IMG/VR virus record: IMGVR_UViG_3300037246_002143 | Span: 1-27,286 of that record | DNA length: 27,286 nt | Reading direction: 5' to 3' (one strand) | Source of the DNA: a virus | Shown here: positions 6,707 to 25,112 of the stretch, in pieces | Layout: each line of letters begins with the position of its first letter | Numbering within the stretch: position 1 is the first letter of the stretch | Translations under genes and position numbers: made by a program | The notes under the pieces: generated by a model | What the model was told of the DNA's origin: nothing | What the model saw: the letters and a program-made list of their open reading frames with translations, nothing else | Databases searched by the model: none

Positions 6707-6754
6707 AGATGAAATTGCTAACTAACAATATTGCGTTTAAGGAAAGGAACACTA

Positions 6755-8047
6755 ATGGCATGGAGTAACCCTTGGCGCAAAAAACGCGAAGTCAAAACAA
6801 TGGTGTTGGGAACATCAGACGCATTCGGACAATTTTTGATGTTCGGCGAAAGCGGTACTGCCGCAACTCCATCTTCATCTTTAGCTTTGTATGAGCAATC
6901 AACCGCAGTCAGCATTCCAATTAACATGATCGCCGATGCTTTTTCTGTGCTTGAACCGATTCTAATTATTGATGATAAGCGAGTCAAAAATCATCCTGTA
7001 ATTGGTTTGCTAAATAAGCCTTCTCCGTATTTTTCTGGCGAGCATTTTCTTGAAATGCTTGGTAAAGAATATCTAATTACCGGGGAAACGATGTTGATTT
7101 TGCTCGGTGGTAGGCGAAGACCGCCGCTAGAACTGCAACCGATTAGCGTAAAAAATGCGTCAGTACCTGAAGGAACAGGCGGCGCGCCAAGCCAAATTCA
7201 AGTTTCTGGGAACACACTAACGGGCGAATACATTCCTGATATCACGAAAGGCGTTCTTCGATATTTCAGCGGCACTTTGCGAGAACTAATTCAGATTCGC
7301 AATTACTCAACTCGAAACAATTCGCTTTTGCGTGGGCAGTCGCCTTTGCTTGCGGCGTCGAAAGAAGTTCGTCAGCATATTTTAGGCGGAACGCATAACA
7401 TTTCGATTCTAGAAAAAGGTGGCCGCGTTAGTTTGATCTTCCATTTTGATGCTGATATGGACGATGAAGATTTTGAAGAGGCAAAGAACCGAGTTAGAGA
7501 GCAATACGGCGGCGCTGGAAACGCTGGCGAAATTGGTGTTACTGCTGGCGGCGAATTGAGTATTAAAGAAGTCGGAATTAATAACCGCGACATGGACTTT
7601 TCAGTTCTGCAGAAAATGGCTGTTAAGTCTGTGACTCTTCAATACCATGTTCCGCTTCCGTTGGTAACTGACGAACGACAAACGCTTAACAATTACAGGG
7701 AAGGAAAATTGGCGTTGTATGATGATGCTGTTATTCCTCTTTCCAAAAGAATTTTTGGCGGTTTAGGTGATACGTTGCTGCCGCGTTTTGGAGTTGATCC
7801 CGCGCGCGGGCGCATAACATTCGATCCTGATCAAGTAAGCTCGCTAGTTGCTAGGCGAAATGAAGAAGTTGGAAAGCGTCAGAAGATCGGCGTTGAATCT
7901 GATAATGAAATTCGCGCCTATCTTGGGAAAGAACCTTACGAGGGTGGCGATACTATTTTGAAATCAGCAAGTTTGATTCCTGCTGGTACAGATATATTCA
8001 CAGAAGATAATGACCCGGACTTTATTGAAATAGATGACGATTCCTAA
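6755..8047 (+). CDS. Portal protein (HK97 family)
   Basis: A 430-residue protein with the layout of HK97-type portals: an N-terminal segment ending in Y-E-Q-S-T-A-V, the P-I-N-M-I-A-D-A-F helix, the N-H-P-V-I-G-L-L-N-K-P-S-P-Y motif (about residues 80-93), a wing region with G-E-T-M-L-I-L-L, and R-G-Q-S-P-L-L-A-A near residue 200. It ends with an acidic tail. Portals form the dodecameric ring through which DNA enters and leaves and to which the tail connects. ATG 6755 is chosen because AAGGAAAGGA lies just upstream; the in-frame TTG 24 bp earlier lacks such a site. It overlaps the MuF-zeta gene by 14 nt, implying coupled translation. Confidence 0.93.
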   Translation: MAWSNPWRKKREVKTMVLGTSDAFGQFLMFGESGTAATPSSSLALYEQSTAVSIPINMIADAFSVLEPILIIDDKRVKNHPVIGLLNKPSPYFSGEHFLEMLGKEYLITGETMLILLGGRRRPPLELQPISVKNASVPEGTGGAPSQIQVSGNTLTGEYIPDITKGVLRYFSGTLRELIQIRNYSTRNNSLLRGQSPLLAASKEVRQHILGGTHNISILEKGGRVSLIFHFDADMDDEDFEEAKNRVREQYGGAGNAGEIGVTAGGELSIKEVGINNRDMDFSVLQKMAVKSVTLQYHVPLPLVTDERQTLNNYREGKLALYDDAVIPLSKRIFGGLGDTLLPRFGVDPARGRITFDPDQVSSLVARRNEEVGKRQKIGVESDNEIRAYLGKEPYEGGDTILKSASLIPAGTDIFTEDNDPDFIEIDDDS

Positions 8048-9824
8048 GCAAAAAAGACAAGCGGCGGAAGACCACAATATCAAGCTAGTGCTTGAAAGCC
8101 GTTTGCGTGCAAAAATCAACGCTTTGAATGAGAAAATCATTCGAGAGTTTACTGCTTCGGTTGCGAGAATTGGGAACATTCCAAATTTCTTTAAGTACGA
8201 AGACGCTTTAGAAAAAATTCTTACCCAACATGATCAACTTGTAGCGAGCGTTTTTATTGAGCGAATAAATAGACAAGTTGAAGCAGAAGAAAGCGGAACA
8301 AAGCAATTAATTCCGTTTATAAAATTGTCTGCCGAAGAAACTGCGATTGGCGCAATCGAATTATTTTCTGCGCGGTCTGTTGCAAAAGTCCCTGTTGTCG
8401 TTAATAGCTATCTCACAACAAAAACATCAGATAGTGTTAGCAAGATAACCGAAACAACTAAAAAAGATGCGGCAAGAGCGTTGCAGAAAGCGCAAACCAT
8501 AGCCGCTACTACAGCTGTAGAAAAAGTTGAAGTCGCTAGTTTAAGTGGTTCGATATTCCGAACTAAATTGAATGGCCGAACAACTGGCATTGTCACGTTA
8601 AACACAAACGCCGCCGCAGAATCTGCAAAACTAACACAGATCGAATTGTTGAGCGGCGAAGAACCTACGCTTGGCGGCGCGGGAACTAACAGAAGTAAAA
8701 GCAAAAAATCTTGGGCGAATATGGGCGATAGCCTAGTTCGTGCCGGTGGCAAATCTGCGTTTAATCATCTTCGCGCGGAACAGGAAGTTCAAATTGATAA
8801 ACCTTTCATCGTTAGTGGTGAAAGTTTACGTTTCCCCGGCGACATGAGTTTGGGAGCATCTATCGGTAACGTTGCGAACTGCCGATGCTCTGCTACTTAC
8901 GATATTAAGAAAGTCGTTAACACGCGAAAGGGTTTAAGTGAAGTTGCAAGTACAACTTCGCGCGGGGGCGCGCGCATAAGAGATGACGTTAACAGTTTAT
9001 TGCGCGGGCAATTGGGAAGAAACTCTAGACAATTCGCAAGGGAACGTTTGGTTCCCGCTAGCAAAGCTGGCAAAGCGGGAACGGAAGCAATGTTTCGACA
9101 TGCTGACGGATCATGGGTAGCAAGCAGACAAAAATTGCATGAAGAAATTATTGCTGAAATTATGGAAGCTGCAAAATCTGTTAAGCCGGGAGAAAAAGTG
9201 CGATTGCAATTGTTAGGCGGTGGTCCCGCGTCCGGTAAATCGACGTTAGGAATTGTTGCGCCTGATGGTTCGGTTGTAATTGACGTTGATGCTATTCGCG
9301 CATTCTTGCCGGAATTCAGAGCGGGTTCGCGCATTGGAAAAACAACCGGAGTTTTCAACAACGCAAACGCTGCAGCAATGACGCATAACGAAGCGAGTTA
9401 TTTGGGTGGCGAAATTGCTAAGCGTGCCGCGCGTATGCGCGCGCATGTAATTCTAGATCAAGTTGGCGATGGAAAAATTGATAAATTTTTGAAGAAATTG
9501 AAACCATTTCTTGATGACGGTTATAAAATTGAGGGTAATTATGTAACCGTCGATGTTGAAGAAGCACTTAGGCGCGCGCGTATCCGCGCATTGAAAACCG
9601 GAAGAACGGTTCCCGAAGAAGTAATTAGAGAATTACATGCTGGTGTTTCTGACACTACTTTGAAAATTCTAGAAAAAGGCGATGTGTTTGACGAATTTCG
9701 ATTGGTGTTTGGTGACAAAGAAGGAAAAGAAATTGCAAAGATCGTCAAAGGCAAATTGAAAATCGTTGATCAAAAATTGTGGGATGATTTTGCTGCAAAG
9801 GCTGCTGATGTTGTTGTCAAGTGA
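8034..9824 (+). CDS. MuF head protein fused to a zeta-toxin-like kinase domain
   Basis: A 596-residue fusion. The N-terminal part (to about residue 295) ends like Mu gpF / SPP1 gp7 head-morphogenesis proteins: H-L-R-A-E-Q, F-I-V-S-G-E-S-L, F-P-G-D and N-C-R-C (residues 282-285). After a linker, residues about 385-560 form a zeta/PezT-type P-loop kinase: G-G-G-P-A-S-G-K-S-T (395-404), V-I-D-V-D-A-I-R (415-422), H-N-E-A-S (451-455), L-D-Q-V-G-D-G (474-480) and R-A-R-I-R with G-R-T-V-P (514-527). The nucleotide-binding Lys, the acidic residues and the arginines are all present, so it looks active. Zeta toxins phosphorylate UDP-activated amino sugars and block cell-wall synthesis. MuF proteins travel in the head in low copy and are known as carriers of C-terminal toxins. 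It lies between portal and protease, the usual MuF position. Confidence 0.88.
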   Translation: MTIPKQKRQAAEDHNIKLVLESRLRAKINALNEKIIREFTASVARIGNIPNFFKYEDALEKILTQHDQLVASVFIERINRQVEAEESGTKQLIPFIKLSAEETAIGAIELFSARSVAKVPVVVNSYLTTKTSDSVSKITETTKKDAARALQKAQTIAATTAVEKVEVASLSGSIFRTKLNGRTTGIVTLNTNAAAESAKLTQIELLSGEEPTLGGAGTNRSKSKKSWANMGDSLVRAGGKSAFNHLRAEQEVQIDKPFIVSGESLRFPGDMSLGASIGNVANCRCSATYDIKKVVNTRKGLSEVASTTSRGGARIRDDVNSLLRGQLGRNSRQFARERLVPASKAGKAGTEAMFRHADGSWVASRQKLHEEIIAEIMEAAKSVKPGEKVRLQLLGGGPASGKSTLGIVAPDGSVVIDVDAIRAFLPEFRAGSRIGKTTGVFNNANAAAMTHNEASYLGGEIAKRAARMRAHVILDQVGDGKIDKFLKKLKPFLDDGYKIEGNYVTVDVEEALRRARIRALKTGRTVPEEVIRELHAGVSDTTLKILEKGDVFDEFRLVFGDKEGKEIAKIVKGKLKIVDQKLWDDFAAKAADVVVK

Positions 9825-9987
9825 AGACGTAATAAATATTTATTTGGAAATCGTCAATGGTGAAGCAGCGCCAAAAAATGAGCCTGAAGATCATAGAATT
9901 TTTCGCGCAAAAGTTGCAGAAGAAGTCCGACAATTGAAAAAATTAAATATGACGCTAGAAATACCAAGCGATGATTTAAGAGAATAA
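9808..9987 (+). CDS. Small helical protein, candidate antitoxin for the zeta domain
   Basis: A 59-residue protein starting at ATG 9808, supported by AAAGG at 9797-9801; in-frame starts at 9784 and 9766 are possible but have weaker sites. It overlaps the end of the MuF-zeta gene by 17 nt in another frame and stops 2 bp before the protease gene. The sequence is charged and predicted mainly helical, with an E-D-H-R-I-F-R-A-K-V-A-E-E-V helix in the middle and an acidic end. Epsilon antitoxins of zeta systems are small helical proteins, and immunity genes of MuF toxins usually lie immediately downstream, so the position fits. I see no sequence signature proving this; it may instead be an unrelated small head gene. 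Confidence 0.6.
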   Translation: MLLSSEDVINIYLEIVNGEAAPKNEPEDHRIFRAKVAEEVRQLKKLNMTLEIPSDDLRE

Positions 9988-9989
9988 CA

Positions 9990-11171
9990 ATGCCCCTAAT
10001 GAAGTGCCAAAAAGATGGTAAATCGGGGTGGAAATGGGGCGAAGGTGGTGTTTGTTTTACTGGATCTAATGGGCGCAGTCGCGCAGCGGCAGTTGGCAGA
10101 GCCATTCATGCGCAGGGGAATAAATTGCATATGAAATCTATTGAAACCAAACGCTTTGGTGGACACATTTTAGATACAAAGCAAGAAGAACGCAACGGCG
10201 TTCCCGTCGGGATTGTGTCTGGCCATATTGCGGCTTGGACCCCCGATACCGGCGGCATGTATGGAATGCCAGATAGATTTCACCCAGGCGCATTCTTGAA
10301 ATCTTTAGCCGAACATCGTTTGCGTAACAATCGACAAGTCCGAATGAAAGATCATCATGGCCGAACCATCGGCGGATTCCCGATTGAAACAATGCAAGAG
10401 GATGGAAAGGGATTGTTCGGGCGTGGCGAAATTAATCTTGAAACTCAACTTGGACGCGAAGCATATTCGCTTGCTAGGCAACGGGTACTAACTGATTTTT
10501 CAATTGGCTTCATCGCTATTGAAGACAAAATTGATGCTGGTTTCAGAGAAATTTTTGAAGCTGTAATTATCGAAGGAAGCATTGTTGATGAACCGATGAA
10601 TGTAGACGCCAACATAACAGAAGTTAAAGTTGCAATACCTTTTCAAGATTTACCGCTTGCTGAGCGGATGACGAGTTGGAATCCGCAAGCCGCTAAAGAT
10701 AGGGTGAAAGATTTCACAGAATCCAAAGGCGCGCCTAGCGGGAATTTCAAACAAGCGTTTATTTGGCTAGATGAAGAAAGGGTTGAAAGATTTGACGGTT
10801 ACAAACTGCAAATCGCCGATGTTATTGACGACAAAATGTTGGCTGTTCCGCGCGCGATTGTGAAAGCGGCGAATGAAGTTCTTAAACGCGACGTTGGGAT
10901 TCCTGATGAAGACGTTGGCGGCGTAACCCAACACATTGAAAGGTATTATGCGAAGATGGGTTTGGTTTCCCCATTTAGCGATGATGAAAAACAATTTTTT
11001 GGAGTGGAAGAAATTAAGAATTTCACTTGTAGAGATATGGAAAGGGCTTTGCGCGATAGCGGCGCGTTTTCAAAAAGCGCAGCTGTTGAACTAGCTGGAA
11101 AATTTATTGGGTTGAAAAATCCTGAAAGTGCGGCAGATATTTTGAAAGTTTTGGATAGGATAAGGATTTAA
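9990..11171 (+). CDS. Prohead maturation protease (HK97 / S78 family) with extra N- and C-terminal domains
   Basis: A 393-residue protein. Residues about 1-45 form a small module (P-L-M-K-C-Q, G-W-K-W-G, G-V-C-F-T-G) seen ahead of some phage proteases. The S78 protease core follows (about 48-215): K-D-H-H-G-R-T-I-G-G with the catalytic His at 122 or 123, L-T-D-F-S-I-G-F with Ser171, and E-G-S-I-V-D-E-P-M-N near residue 195. The C-terminal region (about 225-393) has F-D-G-Y-K-L, V-P-R-A-I and Y-Y-A-K-M-G motifs and may act as scaffold or be cleaved during assembly. The enzyme trims the capsid delta domain once the prohead is built, which fits the capsid gene directly downstream with a long helical N-terminus. 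Confidence 0.9.
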   Translation: MPLMKCQKDGKSGWKWGEGGVCFTGSNGRSRAAAVGRAIHAQGNKLHMKSIETKRFGGHILDTKQEERNGVPVGIVSGHIAAWTPDTGGMYGMPDRFHPGAFLKSLAEHRLRNNRQVRMKDHHGRTIGGFPIETMQEDGKGLFGRGEINLETQLGREAYSLARQRVLTDFSIGFIAIEDKIDAGFREIFEAVIIEGSIVDEPMNVDANITEVKVAIPFQDLPLAERMTSWNPQAAKDRVKDFTESKGAPSGNFKQAFIWLDEERVERFDGYKLQIADVIDDKMLAVPRAIVKAANEVLKRDVGIPDEDVGGVTQHIERYYAKMGLVSPFSDDEKQFFGVEEIKNFTCRDMERALRDSGAFSKSAAVELAGKFIGLKNPESAADILKVLDRIRI

Positions 11172-11210: not shown

Positions 11211-11264
11211 ACTAAAACGAAATTGAAACAGCAACATAAACTAACGTAATTAGGAGCATTGAAA

Positions 11265-12536
11265 ATGGCTGACCCTAAAACAAATGAAGAGGTAATGAGC
11301 GCTGTTACCGAACTTCGCGGTGAAGTTGAAAAGAAGGGCTTCATTGATAAGGATAAGATTGAACGTTTGAATGAAGTTCTCGACGGACACGAAACGAAGA
11401 ATCAGCAAATCGTTTTGCTTGAGCAGTCTACAAAGAATCATGAGCAAGCGATTACTGAACTGAAAGAAGCGCGCGTTGAAGTAAAAGAAGCAGACGAGAA
11501 ACGACAAGCTGAGTTGAAGACTCAGATTGACGATCTTGAGGCGGAAGTCGCGCGCGGAATTGAAACAAAGATTGCGAATGATCCTAACGCTTACAAGAAT
11601 GGTGAAGAGTATAAGGCTCTGAATGTTTTTTGTAAGAGTGGTGAAAATTCCATGAGCGCTGAGCAGAAGGTTTTGCTCAGAACTGATTCTGCCGTCGATG
11701 GTGGAATTCTTGCGCCGAGCGAACTTGATAATCAGATTATGAAGAAGATTACTGAGATTGATCCGATTCGTTCGATTGCAAGAGTCAGAACTATCAACAG
11801 CAAGTCGATGGAAATGGCAATTCGGAACACCATTCCGGTTGCAACGTATGAAGGCGAAGCGGAAGAAGGCGCCGATAGTGTCGCCACTTACGAATCGGTG
11901 ACTGTGACGCCGTATCGCCAAACTCATACGTCGCCAATCACTAAGGACATGCTGATGGATGCGGCTTTCGATATGGATTCGGAAATTGCATCGGATTCGG
12001 CGGAAGCTTTTGGTTTTGGTGAAGGCGCTGGATTTGTTCTTGGTGATGGATTCAAGAAACCTGAAGGGTTTATGCAGAATGCAATTATTCTTGCAGCAAC
12101 CCAAGCGGGAACGACTGGCACAGCTGGTGTAATTCCTGCAGTTGATGTGATTCTTCTTACTGGCAAGCTCAAGACTGGATACAATCCTGTGTTCGTTTTG
12201 AATCGGCGAACGTTGGCGCAGTTGCGTTCACAGGTTTCAACAACTGGCCAATTCCTTTGGCAACCGGGGCTGAATGGCCCGGTAGCTAATAGTTTGGCTG
12301 GGTATCCGTATGCGGTTGCAAACACTATGGCAGATGAAGCGAATAATTCTTACTCGCTTGCCTTTGGTGATTTCCGACGGGGATACACAATCGTTGATAG
12401 AACTGGTTTGAGTGTTGTTCGTGACGAGTATACGCTCAAGAAGAAGGCGATTGTTGAATTCACGATGAATCGTTGGAATACCGGCATTGTTACTTTGCCT
12501 GAAGCAATCAAAGTCACAAAGACTCCGGCAACTTAA
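11265..12536 (+). CDS. Major capsid protein (HK97 fold)
   Basis: A 423-residue major head protein. Residues about 5-105 are charged and heptad-like (many Glu, Lys, Leu), as in the delta domain that acts as internal scaffold and is removed by the protease encoded upstream. The body has HK97 hallmarks: T-D-S-A-V-D-G-G-I-L-A-P near residue 144, D-P-I-R-S-I-A-R-V, T-Y-E-G-E-A-E-E-G in the E-loop region, then F-V-L-N-R-R-T-L-A-Q-L-R, Y-P-Y-A-V and F-G-D-F-R-R-G-Y in the P and A domains. ATG 11265 is chosen over TTG 11259 because TAGGAG (11251-11256) is at the best distance. The leader contains two GGA-loop hairpins, and codon use here favours AAG and CTC/CTT more than its neighbours, as expected for strong expression. 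Confidence 0.95.
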   Translation: MADPKTNEEVMSAVTELRGEVEKKGFIDKDKIERLNEVLDGHETKNQQIVLLEQSTKNHEQAITELKEARVEVKEADEKRQAELKTQIDDLEAEVARGIETKIANDPNAYKNGEEYKALNVFCKSGENSMSAEQKVLLRTDSAVDGGILAPSELDNQIMKKITEIDPIRSIARVRTINSKSMEMAIRNTIPVATYEGEAEEGADSVATYESVTVTPYRQTHTSPITKDMLMDAAFDMDSEIASDSAEAFGFGEGAGFVLGDGFKKPEGFMQNAIILAATQAGTTGTAGVIPAVDVILLTGKLKTGYNPVFVLNRRTLAQLRSQVSTTGQFLWQPGLNGPVANSLAGYPYAVANTMADEANNSYSLAFGDFRRGYTIVDRTGLSVVRDEYTLKKKAIVEFTMNRWNTGIVTLPEAIKVTKTPAT

Positions 12537-14314: not shown

Positions 14315-17300
14315 GTGCCCACCTATATACTAAATAATGTTGGTGGAACCCTCAATTATGACACACCTGTGGATCTTGGCGATCTTGATGACGATCCGTA
14401 TAACCCAGATGGCGTGTATTGGGTGGCAAATGATGATGGCACTGACACTTTCATGCGCGCCGGATTTGAAAATCCGTCAGATGATCTTCTAGCTGGGGAT
14501 AATTTACAAGAGTATCAAGTCCATGTAGTAAAAGTGGATACACTTGATGGCAACGATCCAACTTTAACGATTGCACTTTATAATGGTGCAACTCCTGTAC
14601 GTGATCTACTAACAGATGAACCTATTGGGAATGACCCTGCTGGTTACACTTTCAGTGTTTTCTGGAATGCAAATGAATTAACTCAAATCAGTGGCAATGC
14701 TGCTGCAATTGGTATTACAGGTAATCGTAGTGGTGGTGGGCCAACTGTTAGACGGGTTGCCGTAGTCGGTGCAGTTCGGTGGATTTCTACAGAAGATACA
14801 GGCGGCGTTACGCATCAAGGCGAAGGAATTGTTGACGGTGATGCTACCGTCGATGATGCGACTGCCGAAGTTGATCATCAAGCGATTGCCGACGTAACCG
14901 GAAGCGCGACTGTTACGCTGGCTACTGCCAGTATGACGCGGGGTGACTTTGCTGATGTAACTGGAATCGCAACTGTAACTTTGGCGACTGGCGCCATAAA
15001 GAAACTTGCCGAAGCCGAAGCCGCAGGTTTGGCTGTTGCATCTGCGCTTGCTGAAGTAGATCATCAGGCCGTCGCTGGGGTTACTGGCGTTGCGACGGTC
15101 GATGCAAGCGCACATTTGAATATTATTCTTGGTGTTCCTTTCGCACCAGACTTTGAAGCTACTGTTATAAATTTCACCGGTTCCTACCTTGATATTGATG
15201 AAGATCCGTATGACATAGATGCAAATTGGATGGATGTTGTAGATGAAACTTCCGTCTGTTTTGGCATTTTTGATCTACCTGATTCGCTTCAATACAAAGT
15301 TGTTCGAGCAGTTGGCTTGCATTCTCTTGCTGTCACCGTTCGCAAGAATGCTTCTGGCGGAACTGATCCAACTGTTGCTGCTCAGATGTTTGATAATGCT
15401 GCCGGAAGAGAAATAGTTGTCGATAATGAAACTGTAACTAGCCTAACATCAGAAGTACACACTGGCACATTCGGTTTAATACATGATCTAGATTACATAA
15501 ATCTTCCATTCTTGCGGGTTGCAATATCTGGTACTTCATCTGGCGATAGAAATATTGATATTGCTGCGATGCGTGTTTACCTTGCGATGGAAGGCACGCG
15601 CATCAAGTCTTCAGTTTCTGGCGCGGCGACAGTAACACTAGCTGATGGTGGTTTAATTAAGATTGGCGCAGCGTCGGTATCTGGCGCAGCAACCATTACT
15701 GATGCTACTGGTGGAATTATTCATCCGGCGGCAGCGTCAGTAACTGGTGTTGCAACAGTTACCCTTGCAACCGCTGACGTTCTAAAAATTGGCGCGGCTG
15801 ACGTTACTGGTGTTGCAACTGTAACGCTTGCAACTGCTGAAGTTTTACACATAGCAGCTGCAACAGTTTCTGGCGTTGCAACCGTAACGCTAGCAACAGC
15901 GAAAGTTGATCTTCAAGCAATCGGTTCGGTAACGGGTGTTGGCGATATTGACGCTGACGCCAATCTTACTTTGCGTGTTCTCGCTTCTGTAACTGGAATC
16001 GCAACCGTTACTTTAGCTACCGCAACTATGGAATATTCCGCGTCGGCAAGTGTAGCTGGCGCTGCAACAATCACCGACGCTGGTGGTGGTTTAAGATTTG
16101 ATGCTGCAGCTGATGTAACTGGCGCGGCAACAATTACTGATGCAACCGCCGAAGTTGATCATAGTGCTATCGCTTCTGTTACTGGCATTTGTACTATCAC
16201 CGACGCAACTGGTGATACCGGCGGTTTCAAACAAGGCGAAGCAGACGTAACAGGAACTGCAACAATAACTGATGCTACCGCCGAAGTTCTTCATATTGCA
16301 TCGGCGTCAGTTACTGGCGTTGCAACAATTACTGATGCGACTGGTGATGTTGGCGGAATTCAAGATGGGGCCGCAAGTGTTACCGGAACTGCAACCGTAA
16401 CGCTTGCGACTGCAATAGTTGAATATAGCGCGAATGCGTCAGTAACTGGCATTGCGACTGTAACACTAGCAACCGCAAAAGTTCTTCATAGCGCGGGCGC
16501 GAGCGTAGCGGGCGCGGCAACTATTTCCGCGCGCGCGCATATGAATATAATTCTCGGTGTTCCATTTGCGCCGAGTGCTCATCTAAATAATATAAATTTC
16601 AGTAACGGCTCTAGTGGTTGGGAACAAATCGACGACGATCCGTTTGACATAGATGCGAATTGGCTAGATATTGTAGATGAAACTAGTTTGGGTTTTTATA
16701 TTTCCGAACTTCCAAGTTCGCTTCAGTATAAAGCCATTAGAGGCATTGATTTACATACCGCCGTGATCACAGTTAGGAAAAATGCTTCTGGCGGAACAGA
16801 TCCAGACACTACTTTATCTATATTTGAAGGTGGTAACTCTAGAGAACATCCGATTCTTTCTGAAACTGTTACGGATTTAGTATCTGAAATTCACTCTGGT
16901 ACATTTAGTTTACTAGATGTTACTGATCTTACAGAATTTAATACTGGAGTCCGTAGCAATACATCAGGTGATAGAGGTGTCGATGTTGCTGCCGTTCGTG
17001 TTTATCTTGCAATGGAAGGAACCCGCATAGCGGCATCAGTTACCGGAGTTGCCACAATCACCGACGCAACTGGTGATATTCTTGGCGGAATTCAAGTTGG
17101 TGCTGCTGACGTAACCGGAATCGCAGCGACGACTGGCGATCTTACCGGAACTTATTCTGCTGATGCGGCTGTTACTGGTGTTGGTGCAATTTCTGCCGAT
17201 GCTGATTTAACTTTAGTTGGTGTTACTTCAGTAACTGGCGTTTGTACCGTCAACGCAAAACCCGGAATCAAACTTTCAACTGCTGCAGCGTCGGTAACTG

Positions 17301-18151
17301 GCGAAGCAATTCTAGATCCTGATTACAGTCATGGTTGGCTAAATATAATTCCTGATCGACCGTTCGCGCCGATTGCTGATAGAGCAGGTTTTGGTTACAC
17401 CGGAACTTTCGATTTTGTCGATGAAGATCCATATGACATTGACGATAATTGGGTAACAGTTGACAACCCCAGCGGAAATTCAAATTACATAGTTGATTTT
17501 GTTGATGCTGCTTGGCTCAAAGCAGTTCACGCGCCTAACGCACACAATTTTGCAATTACCGTTAGAAAAAATGCGGCTGGTGGAACTGATCCGGTTCGAT
17601 TGAATGTTCGCAATACGGATGGCCCAGTTCAAAGAGAAACAATAATAGACGATGAAACAGTAACTAACATAGTTTCTGAAGTTCATACTGGCACATTTAG
17701 TTTATTGTGGGCATTTGCAAACCTAACATTCCCGTCTGGTTCCAACAATTTGCGGATTGCTGTACTTGGGAAAACTTCTGGCGATAGAAATCTTGATATT
17801 GCTGCATTCAGAATGTATATGTCGCTTGAAGGAACGCGCGGCAATGCGTCAGTAACCGGAACAGCAACAGCTATTGCGACTGGTGGAATAGTTGTTAGTG
17901 CTAACGCAAACGTTACAGGAATCGCAGCTGTTTCTGCGAATGCAATTATAAAACGTTCTGCGATTGCTTCAGTTACTGGTGTTGCGTCAGTTAGTGCCGA
18001 ACCAGATTTGATAGAAGCTATTATTCTTGGGCGCATTATTTTTGAAGCAAGAATTTTCAAATCAATCGAAAGTAAAACTAACATTTATAAATCCATAAGA
18101 ACATCAAGCGAACTAACAAAAAGCATTTATACCATGTCAGAGGTTGCATAA
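14315..18151 (+). CDS. Giant modular repeat protein, likely fibre or surface structural protein
   Basis: A 1278-residue protein starting with GTG at 14315; a stop codon lies directly upstream in the same frame, so no earlier start exists. Four related globular domains (about residues 1-160, 266-430, 741-904 and 1005-1175) share a D-P-Y/F-D-I-D motif, A-V-T-V-R-K-N-A-S-G-G-T-D-P and a closing S-G-D-R-N-I-D-I-A-A with Y-L-A-M-E-G-T-R; the first copy is diverged. They are joined by about 27 repeats of roughly 20 residues with the core A-S-V-T-G-V-A-T-V-T-L-A-T-A. The last 40 residues contain three 10-residue K-S-I repeats. No cysteine framework, membrane segment or enzyme motif is seen. The build suggests an elongated beta-structured fibre with carbohydrate-binding-like knobs. 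Its site among head-tail joining genes is unusual. Function is inferred. Confidence 0.75.
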   Translation: MPTYILNNVGGTLNYDTPVDLGDLDDDPYNPDGVYWVANDDGTDTFMRAGFENPSDDLLAGDNLQEYQVHVVKVDTLDGNDPTLTIALYNGATPVRDLLTDEPIGNDPAGYTFSVFWNANELTQISGNAAAIGITGNRSGGGPTVRRVAVVGAVRWISTEDTGGVTHQGEGIVDGDATVDDATAEVDHQAIADVTGSATVTLATASMTRGDFADVTGIATVTLATGAIKKLAEAEAAGLAVASALAEVDHQAVAGVTGVATVDASAHLNIILGVPFAPDFEATVINFTGSYLDIDEDPYDIDANWMDVVDETSVCFGIFDLPDSLQYKVVRAVGLHSLAVTVRKNASGGTDPTVAAQMFDNAAGREIVVDNETVTSLTSEVHTGTFGLIHDLDYINLPFLRVAISGTSSGDRNIDIAAMRVYLAMEGTRIKSSVSGAATVTLADGGLIKIGAASVSGAATITDATGGIIHPAAASVTGVATVTLATADVLKIGAADVTGVATVTLATAEVLHIAAATVSGVATVTLATAKVDLQAIGSVTGVGDIDADANLTLRVLASVTGIATVTLATATMEYSASASVAGAATITDAGGGLRFDAAADVTGAATITDATAEVDHSAIASVTGICTITDATGDTGGFKQGEADVTGTATITDATAEVLHIASASVTGVATITDATGDVGGIQDGAASVTGTATVTLATAIVEYSANASVTGIATVTLATAKVLHSAGASVAGAATISARAHMNIILGVPFAPSAHLNNINFSNGSSGWEQIDDDPFDIDANWLDIVDETSLGFYISELPSSLQYKAIRGIDLHTAVITVRKNASGGTDPDTTLSIFEGGNSREHPILSETVTDLVSEIHSGTFSLLDVTDLTEFNTGVRSNTSGDRGVDVAAVRVYLAMEGTRIAASVTGVATITDATGDILGGIQVGAADVTGIAATTGDLTGTYSADAAVTGVGAISADADLTLVGVTSVTGVCTVNAKPGIKLSTAAASVTGEAILDPDYSHGWLNIIPDRPFAPIADRAGFGYTGTFDFVDEDPYDIDDNWVTVDNPSGNSNYIVDFVDAAWLKAVHAPNAHNFAITVRKNAAGGTDPVRLNVRNTDGPVQRETIIDDETVTNIVSEVHTGTFSLLWAFANLTFPSGSNNLRIAVLGKTSGDRNLDIAAFRMYMSLEGTRGNASVTGTATAIATGGIVVSANANVTGIAAVSANAIIKRSAIASVTGVASVSAEPDLIEAIILGRIIFEARIFKSIESKTNIYKSIRTSSELTKSIYTMSEVA
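15608..16540 (+). repeat. Array of about fifteen 60-bp coding repeats
   Basis: Within the giant protein gene, about fifteen units of 57-69 bp encode S-V-T-G-V-A-T-V-T-L-A-T-A variants in tandem. Two sub-types alternate irregularly, one with T-V-T-L-A-T-A and one with T-I-T-D-A-T. Third-base differences between copies show that the array is old or under protein-level selection rather than newly duplicated. Confidence 0.85.
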
Positions 18152-20707: not shown

Positions 20708-20920
20708 ATGTTTATCCAAATAGAAGTTAAAAAAGATCTTGGTGATTACAAAGCCGGGGATATCATTAGTGTTGCTAGTCATGATGGTGTTCCTATTGAT
20801 AATTTTTGGCGACGACGTTTACAAGATGCAACGTTTGATGATTGCTGTTCGATTGTTAAGCCAGCTGTAAAGGAAGAAGTAACTAAAAATGTTAGTTACA
20901 AAACTAAGGAGAAAGAATAA
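20708..20920 (+). CDS. Mu gp38-like small protein (DUF2635-type)
   Basis: A 70-residue protein between terminator and sheath, the same place as gp38 in Mu. The V-P-I-D-N-F-W-R-R-R-L-Q-D-A stretch (about residues 27-40) matches the W-R-R-R-L-x-D ending typical of this small family. TAGGAG stands just before the ATG. The last 20 residues are charged. The stop overlaps the sheath ATG by 1 nt. The role is unknown, presumably in tail assembly. Confidence 0.75.
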   Translation: MFIQIEVKKDLGDYKAGDIISVASHDGVPIDNFWRRRLQDATFDDCCSIVKPAVKEEVTKNVSYKTKEKE

Positions 20921-22479
20921 TGGGCGGAACGCAAATTCTGCAGCCTGAAGTTTCGATATCGCTGGCGAACGCAGATCGCGCAGTCAGCAACACAGATCAA
21001 AAAGTGCTTATTGTTGGTCAACAAGTAGCGGCGGCGACCGCTGTTAGTGGTGAATTGCAAGCAAACCTTGCGAGTACGGGCGCGCCCGAAAACGCTTTGT
21101 TTGGTGAAGCTTCGCAAGTTGCCGCAATGGTTCGCGCGTTTCGAGCGATCAACCCGCTAGTTCAAGTTGATGTTATTCCGCTTGATGACGCTGCCGGAAC
21201 CGCTGGCACTAAAGTAATTACCATTGTTGGAACATCAAGTGAAGCCGGGACACTGGTAGTTGTAGCAGGATCTGAAACGCTTCACAGATATGAAATTGCT
21301 GTAGCGGATTTGGATACACCTACAATTATTGGTGACGCAATCGAAGCTGCAATTAATGGGGATTCAAAGTGTCCCTATACTGCTTCAAATTCAACAGGAA
21401 CTGTTACGCTTACTGCTGACAATAAGGGAACTGTTGCAAATGATCTTGGAGTTGAAACTTCAGGAATAATCGCTGGCGTTACAGGAATGGCAGTTACAAT
21501 TGGCGTTACCGGCGCAACTGATCCAACACTTACTGATATTTTGGATGTTGCAACAGATCGTTATCAGGGAATCGTTTGGCCGTTTGTTGTTGGTGCTGCG
21601 CTTGACACTTTGCTTTTGTGGCTTGATGCTAGATTCAATCCTGATAATGCGATTGAAGACGGCGTTGCGTTTTCTACCATTGTCCAATCTTACGCAAATG
21701 TTCTTGCTGCTGGCAATGCGGAGAATTCGCCGAGTCTGGTTATTTTTGGTGATAAGCTAGAAGCTGAAACTAACTATCAGGGACCAGCGCAAAATGAGCC
21801 TACTTATTCTAAGTCGGCAATGTTTGCAGCTGTTCGTTCGTTGCGACTAACACCAGACGCTTCGATTTCTAGATATCTAACTAGTTCGGCATCTTTGGAT
21901 CAATTTGGTGGCCCTGCGCTAGCGTCGTTGCCTTATTTCAACACTCCAATTCCGCAAATGCCTAACATTAAAGCGCCGCGCGGTTGGACTACTGGCGAAG
22001 TTGAATTGCTTCTTGCTGCTGGCGTTTCTGTTATTGGCGCGAATGCTACTGGTACTGCTGCGTTGGCTGGCGAAGTAGTGACAACGTACAAAACCGATAG
22101 TGGAGCAAATGCGGATATTACTTGGAAGTTTTTGAATTATGTTGATACTTCTAGTGGTGTTCGTGAATACATGTTTAGTAATTACAAGAGTCGATTTGCT
22201 CAATCTCGATTGACTGCGGGTAGTGTTAGTCGCGGGCGCGATATGGCAAATGATGTAATTATCAGAGCATACACAGAGCAGCTTTACAAAGATCTTGCTG
22301 GCCCGAATTATGTTTTGGTCCAAAATGGTGAAGATGCTTTTGTGTATTTCAAGGAAAACCTAACGGTGACACTTGATCTTGATCTTGGCAAAGCAACACT
22401 AACAATGTTTGTGCCTATCGTGACACAACTTCGCCAAATTATTGCGACTATCAAAATCGCATTTGATACGGAGATCTAA
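20920..22479 (+). CDS. Contractile tail sheath protein (Mu gpL-like)
   Basis: A 519-residue sheath subunit. Visible family features are the N-terminal P-E-V-S-I-S-L-A segment, a Rossmann-like stretch with V-L-I-V-G-Q-Q near residue 30, the F-G-E-A-S-Q-V-A-A-M-V-R-A-F-R motif (about 66-80), I-V-W-P-F-V-V-G, and a C-terminal half with W-T-T-G-E-V-E-L-L-L-A-A-G-V and I-I-R-A-Y-T-E-Q-L-Y-K-D-L, ending in the strand that swaps between subunits. Gly/Ala/Thr-rich stretches near 100-200 form the outward domain. It polymerises round the tube and contracts at infection. AAGGAG (20906-20911) gives a strong start. Together with the tube gene it proves a contractile tail. Confidence 0.95.
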   Translation: MGGTQILQPEVSISLANADRAVSNTDQKVLIVGQQVAAATAVSGELQANLASTGAPENALFGEASQVAAMVRAFRAINPLVQVDVIPLDDAAGTAGTKVITIVGTSSEAGTLVVVAGSETLHRYEIAVADLDTPTIIGDAIEAAINGDSKCPYTASNSTGTVTLTADNKGTVANDLGVETSGIIAGVTGMAVTIGVTGATDPTLTDILDVATDRYQGIVWPFVVGAALDTLLLWLDARFNPDNAIEDGVAFSTIVQSYANVLAAGNAENSPSLVIFGDKLEAETNYQGPAQNEPTYSKSAMFAAVRSLRLTPDASISRYLTSSASLDQFGGPALASLPYFNTPIPQMPNIKAPRGWTTGEVELLLAAGVSVIGANATGTAALAGEVVTTYKTDSGANADITWKFLNYVDTSSGVREYMFSNYKSRFAQSRLTAGSVSRGRDMANDVIIRAYTEQLYKDLAGPNYVLVQNGEDAFVYFKENLTVTLDLDLGKATLTMFVPIVTQLRQIIATIKIAFDTEI

Positions 22480-23373: not shown

Positions 23374-23490
23374 ATGTCTTTCTTTGAGGGTGCTTTGAGT
23401 TACAAAGAATTGCGTGAAATGCCGTTACCTGAAATTTCAATGTTGCAAGGCGAAGCCAAGCGCATACACGCGCAAAGGAATAAAAAGTAA
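23374..23490 (+). CDS. Second-frame tail assembly chaperone segment (38 codons)
   Basis: A short frame, one base back (-1) from the preceding gene, that ends on the TAA overlapping the tape measure ATG. Read from ATG 23374 it gives 38 residues, with F-F-E-G-A-L-S-Y-K-E-L-R-E-M-P-L near the start and a basic end. The open frame reaches back to 23284, and the joined -1 reading (I-I-Q-G-I-T-N-L before the ATG) continues the same helical style, so it is more likely the frameshifted extension of the chaperone than a separate gene. The only upstream AAGG lies 13 bp away, which also argues against independent initiation. Confidence 0.65.
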   Translation: MSFFEGALSYKELREMPLPEISMLQGEAKRIHAQRNKK

Positions 23491-25112
23491 TGGCCAATAG
23501 AGTTGTTTGGACGTTCCTAGCAAGAGATAAGTTTAGCGCAGTCGCTCAACGTGTTAAGCGCAAAACTGATCAAATGAATGTTAGGTTTCAACGTCTAAAT
23601 GCAACAATGAAAAAAACAGCCGCTGGTATGAAAAAGATGGCGGTTCACATGAAAAAAGCAGCGGTCGCGGCTGGCCTTGCAGCCGGGGCCGCGCTTAAAG
23701 CATTTTCAAATATGGAAAAAGGCATTGTAAAAGTTTATGGTTTGTTAAACGTACAAGATTTAAAGAAATGGAGTAAAACCATTGATGACACAATCGCAAA
23801 TTCAATGGCTGAATTCGGAATCAATAGCGAAGAAGCTTCAACAGCGCTTTACAATGCAATATCTGTGTTGGGCGCAAGCGAAGAAACATTTAAAACATAC
23901 AACGAATCAATAAGACTAGCGGTTGGCGGAAACGCTGATCTTGCACAAGCTACCATCGGCATTGGTAAACTTAAAAATGCTTATGAAGGATTGACGGGCG
24001 CAAAAGCAGCAAACATATTGTTTGTCGCTCAACAGTTGGGCGGCGCGGATGTTAATCAACTAGCGAAAAATGTTGGTAAGGTTGCGAAACTTGCTGCGTC
24101 GATGGGGATATCTGCAGAAGAATATGTTGCAACGTTAGGTGAACTTACAAAATTTATTTCGCCAGAAGAAGCTACAACCGGAATTAAAGGTTTGACTCAA
24201 GCACTTACCGGCGCAAAGGGTGAAGCGAAGAAAATATTGAAAGAATTTGGTCTTCCGACTACGCCACAAGAATTGATAGATACTGGTTGGACCGAATCTT
24301 TGTACCTAATGAACAAAATGATTGAGGAAAATATTGATCAAGCAAAACTAGCAATCCCAAATCAAGAGGGTCTTACAGCGGCATTGGCTATGACTGGTAA
24401 ATCCGCTGAAAATGTTGCTCTATCAGTACAACAAATGGGTTCGGATCAACTAACACCGTCGTTTTTGCGGAACATGGAAACGCTAGATAGGAAATCAAAA
24501 ATCGCTGGACAAAACATGGTTTTGTTTGCTGCCGAAATTGGCAAAGAACTAAAACCGGCGATAGTATTGGCAGCAAAAGTTATCGGCGGCCTAACAAGAT
24601 GGTTTAAAAGTCTTGGTGATGCGTCAAAGAAATTCGTAGCGGGACTTGTAGTTGCGCCAATAGTGATATTTGTTCTAGTAAAAGCTTTTATGGTTCTCAA
24701 AACTGTGTTTCTTGCCCTAAAAGTTGCGTTTCTTTTCATTCTTCCCGTCTTGAAACTTGTATTTTTGGCATTTAAAATTATAGCGTGGGGAGTAGCGGCG
24801 GCTCTATCGGCTATTGGATGGGTTCCAATTGCAATTGCTGCTGCTGTTGTCGCGGTTGGTCTTCTAATTTGGAAATTTGATGTAGTGAAGCAAAAAATTA
24901 TGGAAACTTGGGGCGCTGTTAAAAACTTTTTCGGTTTTGGTGGCAATGAAAAAGAGCTAGAGGTAACTGGTGCGGCAGACCTAACAAAAACCAACAAAAC
25001 AGAAGTTGATATTGGACTCATAGCGCCAAAAAACACTGTTGAGTACATAAGATTGCGTACTTCTGGCGACACTTCGGGTTTGAAAACCGGAGTAAGCATG
25101 GTAACAGGATAA
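23490..25112 (+). CDS. Tail tape measure protein
   Basis: A 540-residue protein with the usual tape measure make-up: a basic, helical N-terminus (many Lys, Met, Ala; residues 1-70), the E-A-S-T-A-L-Y-N-A-I-S-V-L-G-A-S-E-E motif (about 114-131) and the S-P-E-E-A-T-T-G-I-K-G-L segment of the phage minor tail/TP901 type core, then hydrophobic helices between about residues 385 and 470 that could insert into the host membrane. Its length sets tail length; at about 0.15 nm per residue the tail would be about 80 nm, short for a myovirus but near Mu-like sizes. The ATG overlaps the previous stop (TAATG). Confidence 0.92.
   Translation: MANRVVWTFLARDKFSAVAQRVKRKTDQMNVRFQRLNATMKKTAAGMKKMAVHMKKAAVAAGLAAGAALKAFSNMEKGIVKVYGLLNVQDLKKWSKTIDDTIANSMAEFGINSEEASTALYNAISVLGASEETFKTYNESIRLAVGGNADLAQATIGIGKLKNAYEGLTGAKAANILFVAQQLGGADVNQLAKNVGKVAKLAASMGISAEEYVATLGELTKFISPEEATTGIKGLTQALTGAKGEAKKILKEFGLPTTPQELIDTGWTESLYLMNKMIEENIDQAKLAIPNQEGLTAALAMTGKSAENVALSVQQMGSDQLTPSFLRNMETLDRKSKIAGQNMVLFAAEIGKELKPAIVLAAKVIGGLTRWFKSLGDASKKFVAGLVVAPIVIFVLVKAFMVLKTVFLALKVAFLFILPVLKLVFLAFKIIAWGVAAALSAIGWVPIAIAAAVVAVGLLIWKFDVVKQKIMETWGAVKNFFGFGGNEKELEVTGAADLTKTNKTEVDIGLIAPKNTVEYIRLRTSGDTSGLKTGVSMVTG

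What the first reader, a model, noticed from the sequence alone, without database searches (positions are those of the whole stretch)
8034..9824. Structural MuF head protein carrying a complete zeta-type toxin kinase
The N-terminal part ends with the MuF hallmarks (F-P-G-D, N-C-R-C) and the C-terminal part has all motifs expected of a zeta/PezT UDP-amino-sugar kinase, including the P-loop Lys402, Asp419, Glu453 and Arg518/Arg524. MuF-toxin fusions are known in temperate phages, mainly from Gram-positive hosts; here one sits in a Mu-tailed phage between portal and protease. The toxin could travel in the virion and act on the newly infected cell, on rival bacteria or on competing phages.
Basis: partly seen in the sequence, partly recalled or inferred. 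Interest (0 to 1): 0.8.

Follow-up and report, generated by a model that had tools for sequence, protein, structure and literature searches.

The report
Phage head protein carrying kinase toxin
A phage head protein carries a swappable toxin-like kinase at its tail end, and right behind its gene sits a tiny, previously unclassified protein that accompanies such kinases in dozens of unrelated phages and is probably their antidote.

Summary
ORF 8034-9824 (596 aa) is a MuF-type minor head protein (residues 1 to about 298) fused to a complete P-loop kinase of the Pfam Zeta_toxin family (residues 355-596). It lies between portal and prohead protease in a contractile-tailed phage.

The UDP-amino-sugar kinase reading is only partly supported. 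Catalytic Lys402, Asp419, Arg518 and Arg524 are kept, but none of zeta's five UNAG-site residues is, and Glu453 is not zeta's Glu100. The predicted fold matches AvrRxo1 (a 3'-NAD kinase) as well as zeta. The substrate is open.

The MuF-zeta fusion itself is published (Iyer 2017). It occurs in 65 of 89 zeta loci, 0 of 106 non-zeta loci and 29 of 34 out-of-sample zeta contigs.

Most likely this is a virion-delivered kinase effector with its own inhibitor. Activity, toxicity and delivery are inferred, not shown.

The parts
8034..9824 (+). muf-kinase gene, 596 aa
8034..8927 (+). MuF minor head domain, residues 1-298; the part kept in relatives whatever the C-terminal domain
   Evidence: PHROG 2468/3517; alignment A5; HMM boundary at residue 299
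8928..9095 (+). linker, residues 299-354
   Evidence: between the MuF HMM end and the conserved start of the kinase domain
9096..9821 (+). zeta/AvrRxo1-superfamily kinase domain, residues 355-596
   Evidence: Pfam Zeta_toxin E=5.5e-17; AF2 pLDDT 89.8; PDB fold matches
9216..9242 (+). P-loop GGGPASGKS, residues 395-403, with Lys402
   Evidence: Lys402 kept in 73/75 domains
9288..9290 (+). catalytic-base position Asp419 (zeta Asp67, AvrRxo1 Asp193)
   Evidence: 74/75; profile alignment
9384..9398 (+). HxExS motif, residues 451-455 (HNEAS here, HEESS consensus), shared with AvrRxo1 and not with zeta/PezT
9456..9470 (+). DQVGD, residues 475-479 (consensus DGTGD), in place of zeta's EGTGR UNAG-binding motif
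9585..9605 (+). Arg518 and Arg524 region
   Evidence: 75/75 and 74/75
9808..9987 (+). partner gene, 59 aa, overlapping the kinase gene by 17 nt; candidate immunity/antitoxin protein
   Evidence: (omega 0.215)
6731..8047 (+). portal protein
   Evidence: Pfam Phage_portal E=4.6e-38
9990..11171 (+). prohead protease
   Evidence: Pfam Peptidase_S78 E=9.7e-14
11259..12536 (+). major capsid protein
   Evidence: Pfam Phage_capsid E=1.9e-54
20920..22479 (+). tail sheath (contractile tail)
   Evidence: phrog_165 E=7.9e-53
23490..25112 (+). tape measure protein
   Evidence: phrog_28 E=3.3e-28

Best explanation
A modular virion effector with its own inhibitor. The MuF domain places the protein at or in the phage head next to the portal (inferred from the family). 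The C-terminal kinase is one of several interchangeable effector domains carried there, and it would enter the newly infected cell with the DNA (inferred). It transfers a phosphate from ATP to a small-molecule acceptor; the P-loop, catalytic Asp and two Arg are present (shown), so activity is likely. The acceptor is probably a nucleotide other than UNAG, for example NAD (inferred). The 59-aa helical protein encoded directly behind and overlapping it is the cognate inhibitor: it protects the cell that makes the virions, or a lysogen, while the kinase is expressed (inferred from co-occurrence, co-swapping, co-phylogeny, convergent arrangements and fusions).
For: Fold and catalytic residues. Head-gene position. 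Cassette swapping among phages related by portal and capsid genes: zeta in the window and L011; ADP-ribosyltransferase in L095 and L103; zincin-like (HEIGH) in L093; zincin plus ADP-ribosyltransferase(s) in L098 and L125; no extension in L099, L100, L123. The small downstream ORF matches the C-terminal type in 10 of 10 phages (permutation P=1.3e-5, or 6.6e-5 with the window and L011 merged). Partner family: 65 of 89 zeta loci, 0 of 106 loci without zeta; out-of-sample 29 of 34 contigs, nearly all abutting the kinase gene, about ten of them on the opposite strand. In-frame fusions to the kinase in L033 and L226. Kinase and partner distances correlate, Mantel r=0.53, 0 of 5000 permutations. Recurrent fusion: 27 of 60 N-terminal parts match Pfam Phage_Mu_F.
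Against: No activity, toxicity, inhibition or virion data. 24 of 89 zeta loci lack a partner hit; some of these end at the contig edge and others look like divergent members. The partner could be a folding or packaging chaperone. The ten phages share ancestry, so the 10-of-10 match is not ten independent events. No lysogeny gene was found in this lineage, but all records are fragments.
Confidence: 0.68

Rival explanations
1. Genuine UNAG (or other UDP-sugar) kinase of the zeta/PezT type that blocks peptidoglycan synthesis, as the first reader and Iyer et al. suggested, for example to weaken the wall during entry.
For: Best sequence score in the PDB is zeta (E=1e-18); zeta and PezT fold Z 17.4-17.6, close to AvrRxo1 at 18.7; Pfam Zeta_toxin; proposed in PMC5512222. 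Gonococcal zeta1 shows that the site of phosphorylation and the contacts can vary while UDP-sugars remain the substrate (PMC5923241).
Against: None of the five zeta UNAG-site positions is kept in this protein, and at most one (Thr118) in the family. AvrRxo1, with the same lack, does not use UNAG to a significant extent (PMC5087710).
Confidence: 0.25
2. The small downstream protein is not an inhibitor but a dedicated chaperone or loading factor that keeps the C-terminal domain competent for packaging.
For: Co-swaps with the C-terminal domain. The AvrRxo1 partner Arc1 was named a chaperone and also acts as antitoxin (PMC4938570).
Against: Opposite-strand arrangement in many loci suggests expression independent of the virion genes. 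In-frame fusions (L033, L226) fit inhibition and chaperoning equally.
Confidence: 0.2
3. The C-terminal domain is a structural or vestigial passenger without enzymatic role.
For: Some relatives have no extension and are presumably viable (L099, L100); L098 carries a zeta remnant without P-loop.
Against: Purifying selection (omega 0.23); catalytic residues kept in 73-75 of 75 domains across very divergent phages.
Confidence: 0.07

Closest known systems
MuF-fused zeta-like kinases in 'polyvalent proteins' (Iyer et al. 2017, PMC5512222)
   Same: Same architecture, explicitly stated: a zeta-toxin-like kinase fused to MuF in phages, thought to be delivered with the DNA.
   Different: That passage assumed cell-wall precursor phosphorylation; the passages read here do not mention the small partner gene, the co-swapping or the loss of the UNAG motif.
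MuF polymorphic toxins (Jamet et al. 2017, PMC5576092)
   Same: MuF N-terminus, variable toxin C-terminus, small ORF directly downstream (89% of their 191 cases).
   Different: A term search found no mention of zeta or kinase; their toxins are mostly in temperate phages of Firmicutes; here a contractile-tailed phage of unknown host with no lysogeny gene seen.
AvrRxo1-Arc1 (3'-NAD kinase effector with downstream antitoxin; PMC5087710, PMC5491322, PMC4938570)
   Same: Best fold match (Z 18.7 over 234 residues); profile similarity over nearly the full domain, including the N-terminal PER..LH and the HxES motif; kinase gene upstream of a small antitoxin gene.
   Different: Type III secreted effector of plant pathogens, no MuF; the phage partner shows no PDB match; NAD activity untested here.
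zeta/PezT toxins (epsilon-zeta, PezAT; PMC3062530)
   Same: P-loop Lys, catalytic Asp and two Arg; overall fold (Z about 17.5).
   Different: UNAG-binding residues absent; no recognisable epsilon or PezA; carried on a head protein.
Cyanophage PSS2 minor head protein ACT65592.1
   Same: MuF-like part plus zeta-type domain (35.7% identical), with a partner-family gene nearby.
   Different: 1499-aa polyprotein with a further 866 residues beyond the kinase.

Membership tests
MuF polymorphic toxins | N-terminal MuF domain in a head-gene context | tested here: met
   PHROG 2468/3517; Phage_Mu_F in 4 of 12 relatives; portal-protease context
MuF polymorphic toxins | Variable C-terminal toxin-type domain on a constant N-terminus | tested here: met
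   zeta, ADP-ribosyltransferase, zincin or none on MuF domains 48-91% identical
MuF polymorphic toxins | Small immunity ORF directly downstream | tested here: met
   59-aa ORF, type-specific; immunity function itself not tested
MuF polymorphic toxins | Carried by temperate phages | tested here: inconclusive
   No tyrosine integrase in 11 records of this lineage, all fragments; found over cut-off in 4 of 23 long records of other carriers
zeta/PezT UNAG kinases | Walker A Lys, catalytic Asp, two Arg | tested here: met
   K402, D419, R518, R524
zeta/PezT UNAG kinases | UNAG-site residues E100, T118, R120, T121, T128 | tested here: not met
   G459, V477, D479, variable, K488 by profile alignment
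zeta/PezT UNAG kinases | Epsilon or PezA antitoxin as partner | tested here: inconclusive
   Partner family gives no convincing Pfam, PHROG or PDB sequence or fold match; short helical proteins are easily missed
AvrRxo1-type 3'-NAD kinases | Fold and full-length sequence similarity | tested here: met
   E=8e-11 over profile positions 12-238; Foldseek rank 1, Z 18.7; zeta is within about 1 Z, so this does not single out AvrRxo1
AvrRxo1-type 3'-NAD kinases | Phosphorylates NAD at the adenosine 3'-OH | not testable with these tools
   needs an enzyme assay
AvrRxo1-type 3'-NAD kinases | Downstream small antitoxin of the Arc1 family | tested here: inconclusive
   Gene order is the same; no sequence link to a PDB chain found; partner is 59 aa, Arc1-like proteins mostly 81-98 aa (PMC4938570)
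Polyvalent proteins (Iyer 2017) | Several effector domains on one virion-linked polypeptide | tested here: not met
   The window protein carries one effector domain; relatives L098, L125, L016, L060 and PSS2 carry several

The most novel reading that the evidence does not exclude
A phage-specific branch of the zeta/AvrRxo1 superfamily that phosphorylates NAD (or an NAD-derived or other adenine nucleotide) in the infected cell, for example to disarm NAD-consuming anti-phage defences or to seize metabolism. It is paired with an unrecognised inhibitor family, and kinase and inhibitor move together as a cassette among head proteins of unrelated phages.
Probability: 0.27. Interest if true: 0.85.

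Novelty: new variant of a known kind. Interest (0 to 1): 0.62.

Why it matters
MuF-kinase fusions were predicted from sequence years ago with an assumed cell-wall target and, in the text read here, no partner. The small partner family gives a direct, cheap test of whether these head proteins really are toxins, and a handle to express them safely. The missing UNAG motif and the AvrRxo1-like features redirect the search for a substrate towards nucleotides, perhaps NAD. The matched swapping of effector and small gene in one phage lineage supports a toxin-immunity economy inside virions.

Tried and rejected
phmmer of the single kinase domain against PDB gave nothing significant; only the 69-sequence profile reached zeta and AvrRxo1. 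The single-sequence partner search found only the same two phages; the family appeared only after reading the ORFs behind all zeta genes. Fold search with the partner model (pLDDT 77) gave no significant match. PADLOC gave no match. Plasmid search: no match. Cellular genomes: 2 loci by a scan of 84,980 species with stricter patterns, which only about half of the viral copies would match; 2 of 284 and 4 of 398 sampled genomes by profile; the more distant cellular copies showed no partner in the short stretches read. So the kinase family looks mainly phage-borne, but this is not proof of restriction. Host of the window phage: not determined.

Full report
Observation. ORF 8034-9824 (+) encodes 596 aa. 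Residues 377-559 match Pfam Zeta_toxin at E=5.5e-17. Residues up to about 298 match PHROG head-morphogenesis families; Pfam Phage_Mu_F is reached only by relatives, but the FPGD and NCRC motifs are conserved in the alignment. The gene lies between portal (6731-8047) and prohead protease (9990-11171), ahead of the capsid gene; a tail sheath and a tape measure gene follow, so the tail is contractile. Against the 89%-identical relative L011, omega is 0.16 for MuF and 0.23 for the kinase.

What the domain is. A viral-contig scan with the kinase alignment found 172 relatives, of which 80 loci were kept. In 75 aligned domains Lys402 (73), Asp419 (74), Glu453 (75), Arg518 (75), Arg524 (74) and Tyr503 (75) are nearly invariant. 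The AlphaFold2 model has pLDDT 89.8. The best PDB fold matches are AvrRxo1-ORF1 (Z 18.4-18.7 over about 235 residues), zeta (17.4-17.6) and PezT (17.4); polynucleotide kinases follow at about 12.7. By sequence profile zeta scores best in the core (E=1e-18), while AvrRxo1 (8e-11) aligns over nearly the full profile, including an N-terminal PER..LH motif and HxES.

Substrate. Zeta contacts UNAG through Glu100, Thr118, Arg120 and Thr128, with Thr121 close by (PMC3062530). In the alignment these fall on Gly459 (Lys in 63/75), Val477 (Thr in 68/75), Asp479 (Asp in 69/75), a variable position and Lys488 (Lys in 67/75). None is kept in the window protein. Thr118 is Val here, and Thr to Val at that position made PezT non-toxic (PMC3062530). 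Glu453 aligns with zeta Tyr94, six residues before Glu100, and with the HxES glutamate of AvrRxo1. The mapping rests on a profile alignment and not on superposed structures. AvrRxo1 also lacks the UNAG motif; it phosphorylates NAD at the adenosine 3'-OH and not UNAG (PMC5087710, PMC5491322). My weights are inferences: NAD or some other nucleotide about 0.65 together, UDP-sugars about 0.25, no activity about 0.1.

Swapping. Phages related by capsid and portal keep the MuF domain (48-91% identical) but carry different C-termini: zeta (window, L011), ADP-ribosyltransferase (L095, L103), zincin-like with HEIGH (L093), zincin plus one or two ADP-ribosyltransferases (L098, L125), or none (L099, L100, L123). 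The zincin assignment, and the ADP-ribosyltransferase assignment in L125, were made by eye from motifs and similarity to their relatives. L098 also holds a zeta remnant lacking the P-loop. The small ORF between MuF and protease follows the C-terminal type in all ten phages: a 59-aa type with zeta, a 44-56-aa type with ADP-ribosyltransferase, a 66-67-aa type with zincin, both types where both domains occur, none where there is no extension (permutation P=1.3e-5, or 6.6e-5 merging the two closest phages). Shared ancestry means these are not ten independent events.

The partner family. The ORF at 9808-9987 (59 aa) overlaps the kinase gene by 17 nt and is under purifying selection (omega 0.215). 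Reading the ORFs behind all zeta genes showed that it belongs to one divergent family. An HMM finds it in 65 of 89 zeta loci and in 0 of 106 loci without zeta. Loci include duplicates of the same contig, so counts are not all independent. As an out-of-sample test, 34 zeta contigs not used to build the HMM were taken from a further scan; 29 have the partner, nearly all directly beside the kinase gene. About ten of these, and five in the first set, have it on the opposite strand. It is fused in frame to the kinase protein in L033 and L226. It accompanies the kinase whether the N-terminal part is MuF, another long part or nearly absent. Kinase and partner distances correlate (r=0.53, 0 of 5000 permutations). 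Pfam, PHROGs, PDB sequences and PADLOC hold no convincing match. The model is a two-helix hairpin with a loose tail (pLDDT 77) and has no PDB fold match.

Mechanism. Shown: fusion, predicted fold, catalytic residues, co-occurrence and co-swapping. Inferred: residence in the virion and ejection with DNA (from MuF biology), kinase activity, acceptor, and inhibition by the partner. AvrRxo1-Arc1 also has the small antitoxin gene downstream of the kinase (PMC4938570).

Relation to the literature. Iyer et al. 2017 already state that a zeta-toxin-like kinase is fused to MuF in phages and suggest cell-wall weakening (PMC5512222). A term search of Jamet et al. 2017 found neither zeta nor kinase (PMC5576092). 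Searches of the held papers turned up no description of the partner family or of AvrRxo1-like kinases in phage heads (hit lists judged by title and abstract), and that library lacks most subscription journals. The fusion is therefore a known kind; the partner family, the matched swapping and the doubt about UNAG are the additions.

Limits. The related phage records are mostly metagenome fragments with unknown hosts. No tyrosine integrase was found in this lineage's fragments, while 4 of 23 long records of other carriers have one over the cut-off. Relatives in cellular genomes are rare (about 1% of the sampled genomes of two phyla).

Noticed in passing
L098:2573-5533: A 986-aa MuF protein with zincin and ADP-ribosyltransferase domains and, between them, a decayed zeta domain that has lost its P-loop; the zeta partner gene is absent while the other two small genes are present.
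   Followed up: partly
L226:2638-5157: Kinase, partner protein, a 2H-phosphoesterase-like stretch and a protease-like stretch appear fused in one 840-aa frame (the last two judged by eye).
   Followed up: partly
L006:2886-8339; also L019, L026, L027, L031, L044, L045, L047, L049, L053, L067: A recurrent short linker such as YSEDQARDDHGRFASE or FDPRELRDPHGKWTRG precedes effector domains; it occurs four times in the L006 polyprotein and in 13 of 85 zeta ORFs. It may be a processing or packaging signal.
   Followed up: partly
L093:3938-5683: The MuF domain carries a His/Ala-rich low-complexity insert (AHAHTRAHAHAH) absent from its relatives.
   Followed up: no
window 14315-18151: A 1278-aa protein with no convincing Pfam or PHROG match lies between head-tail connector genes.
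   Followed up: no
L016:4693-9912, L057:2993-9364, L060:3337-9027: Tandem pairs of zeta-type kinase domains in one head-linked polyprotein.
   Followed up: no
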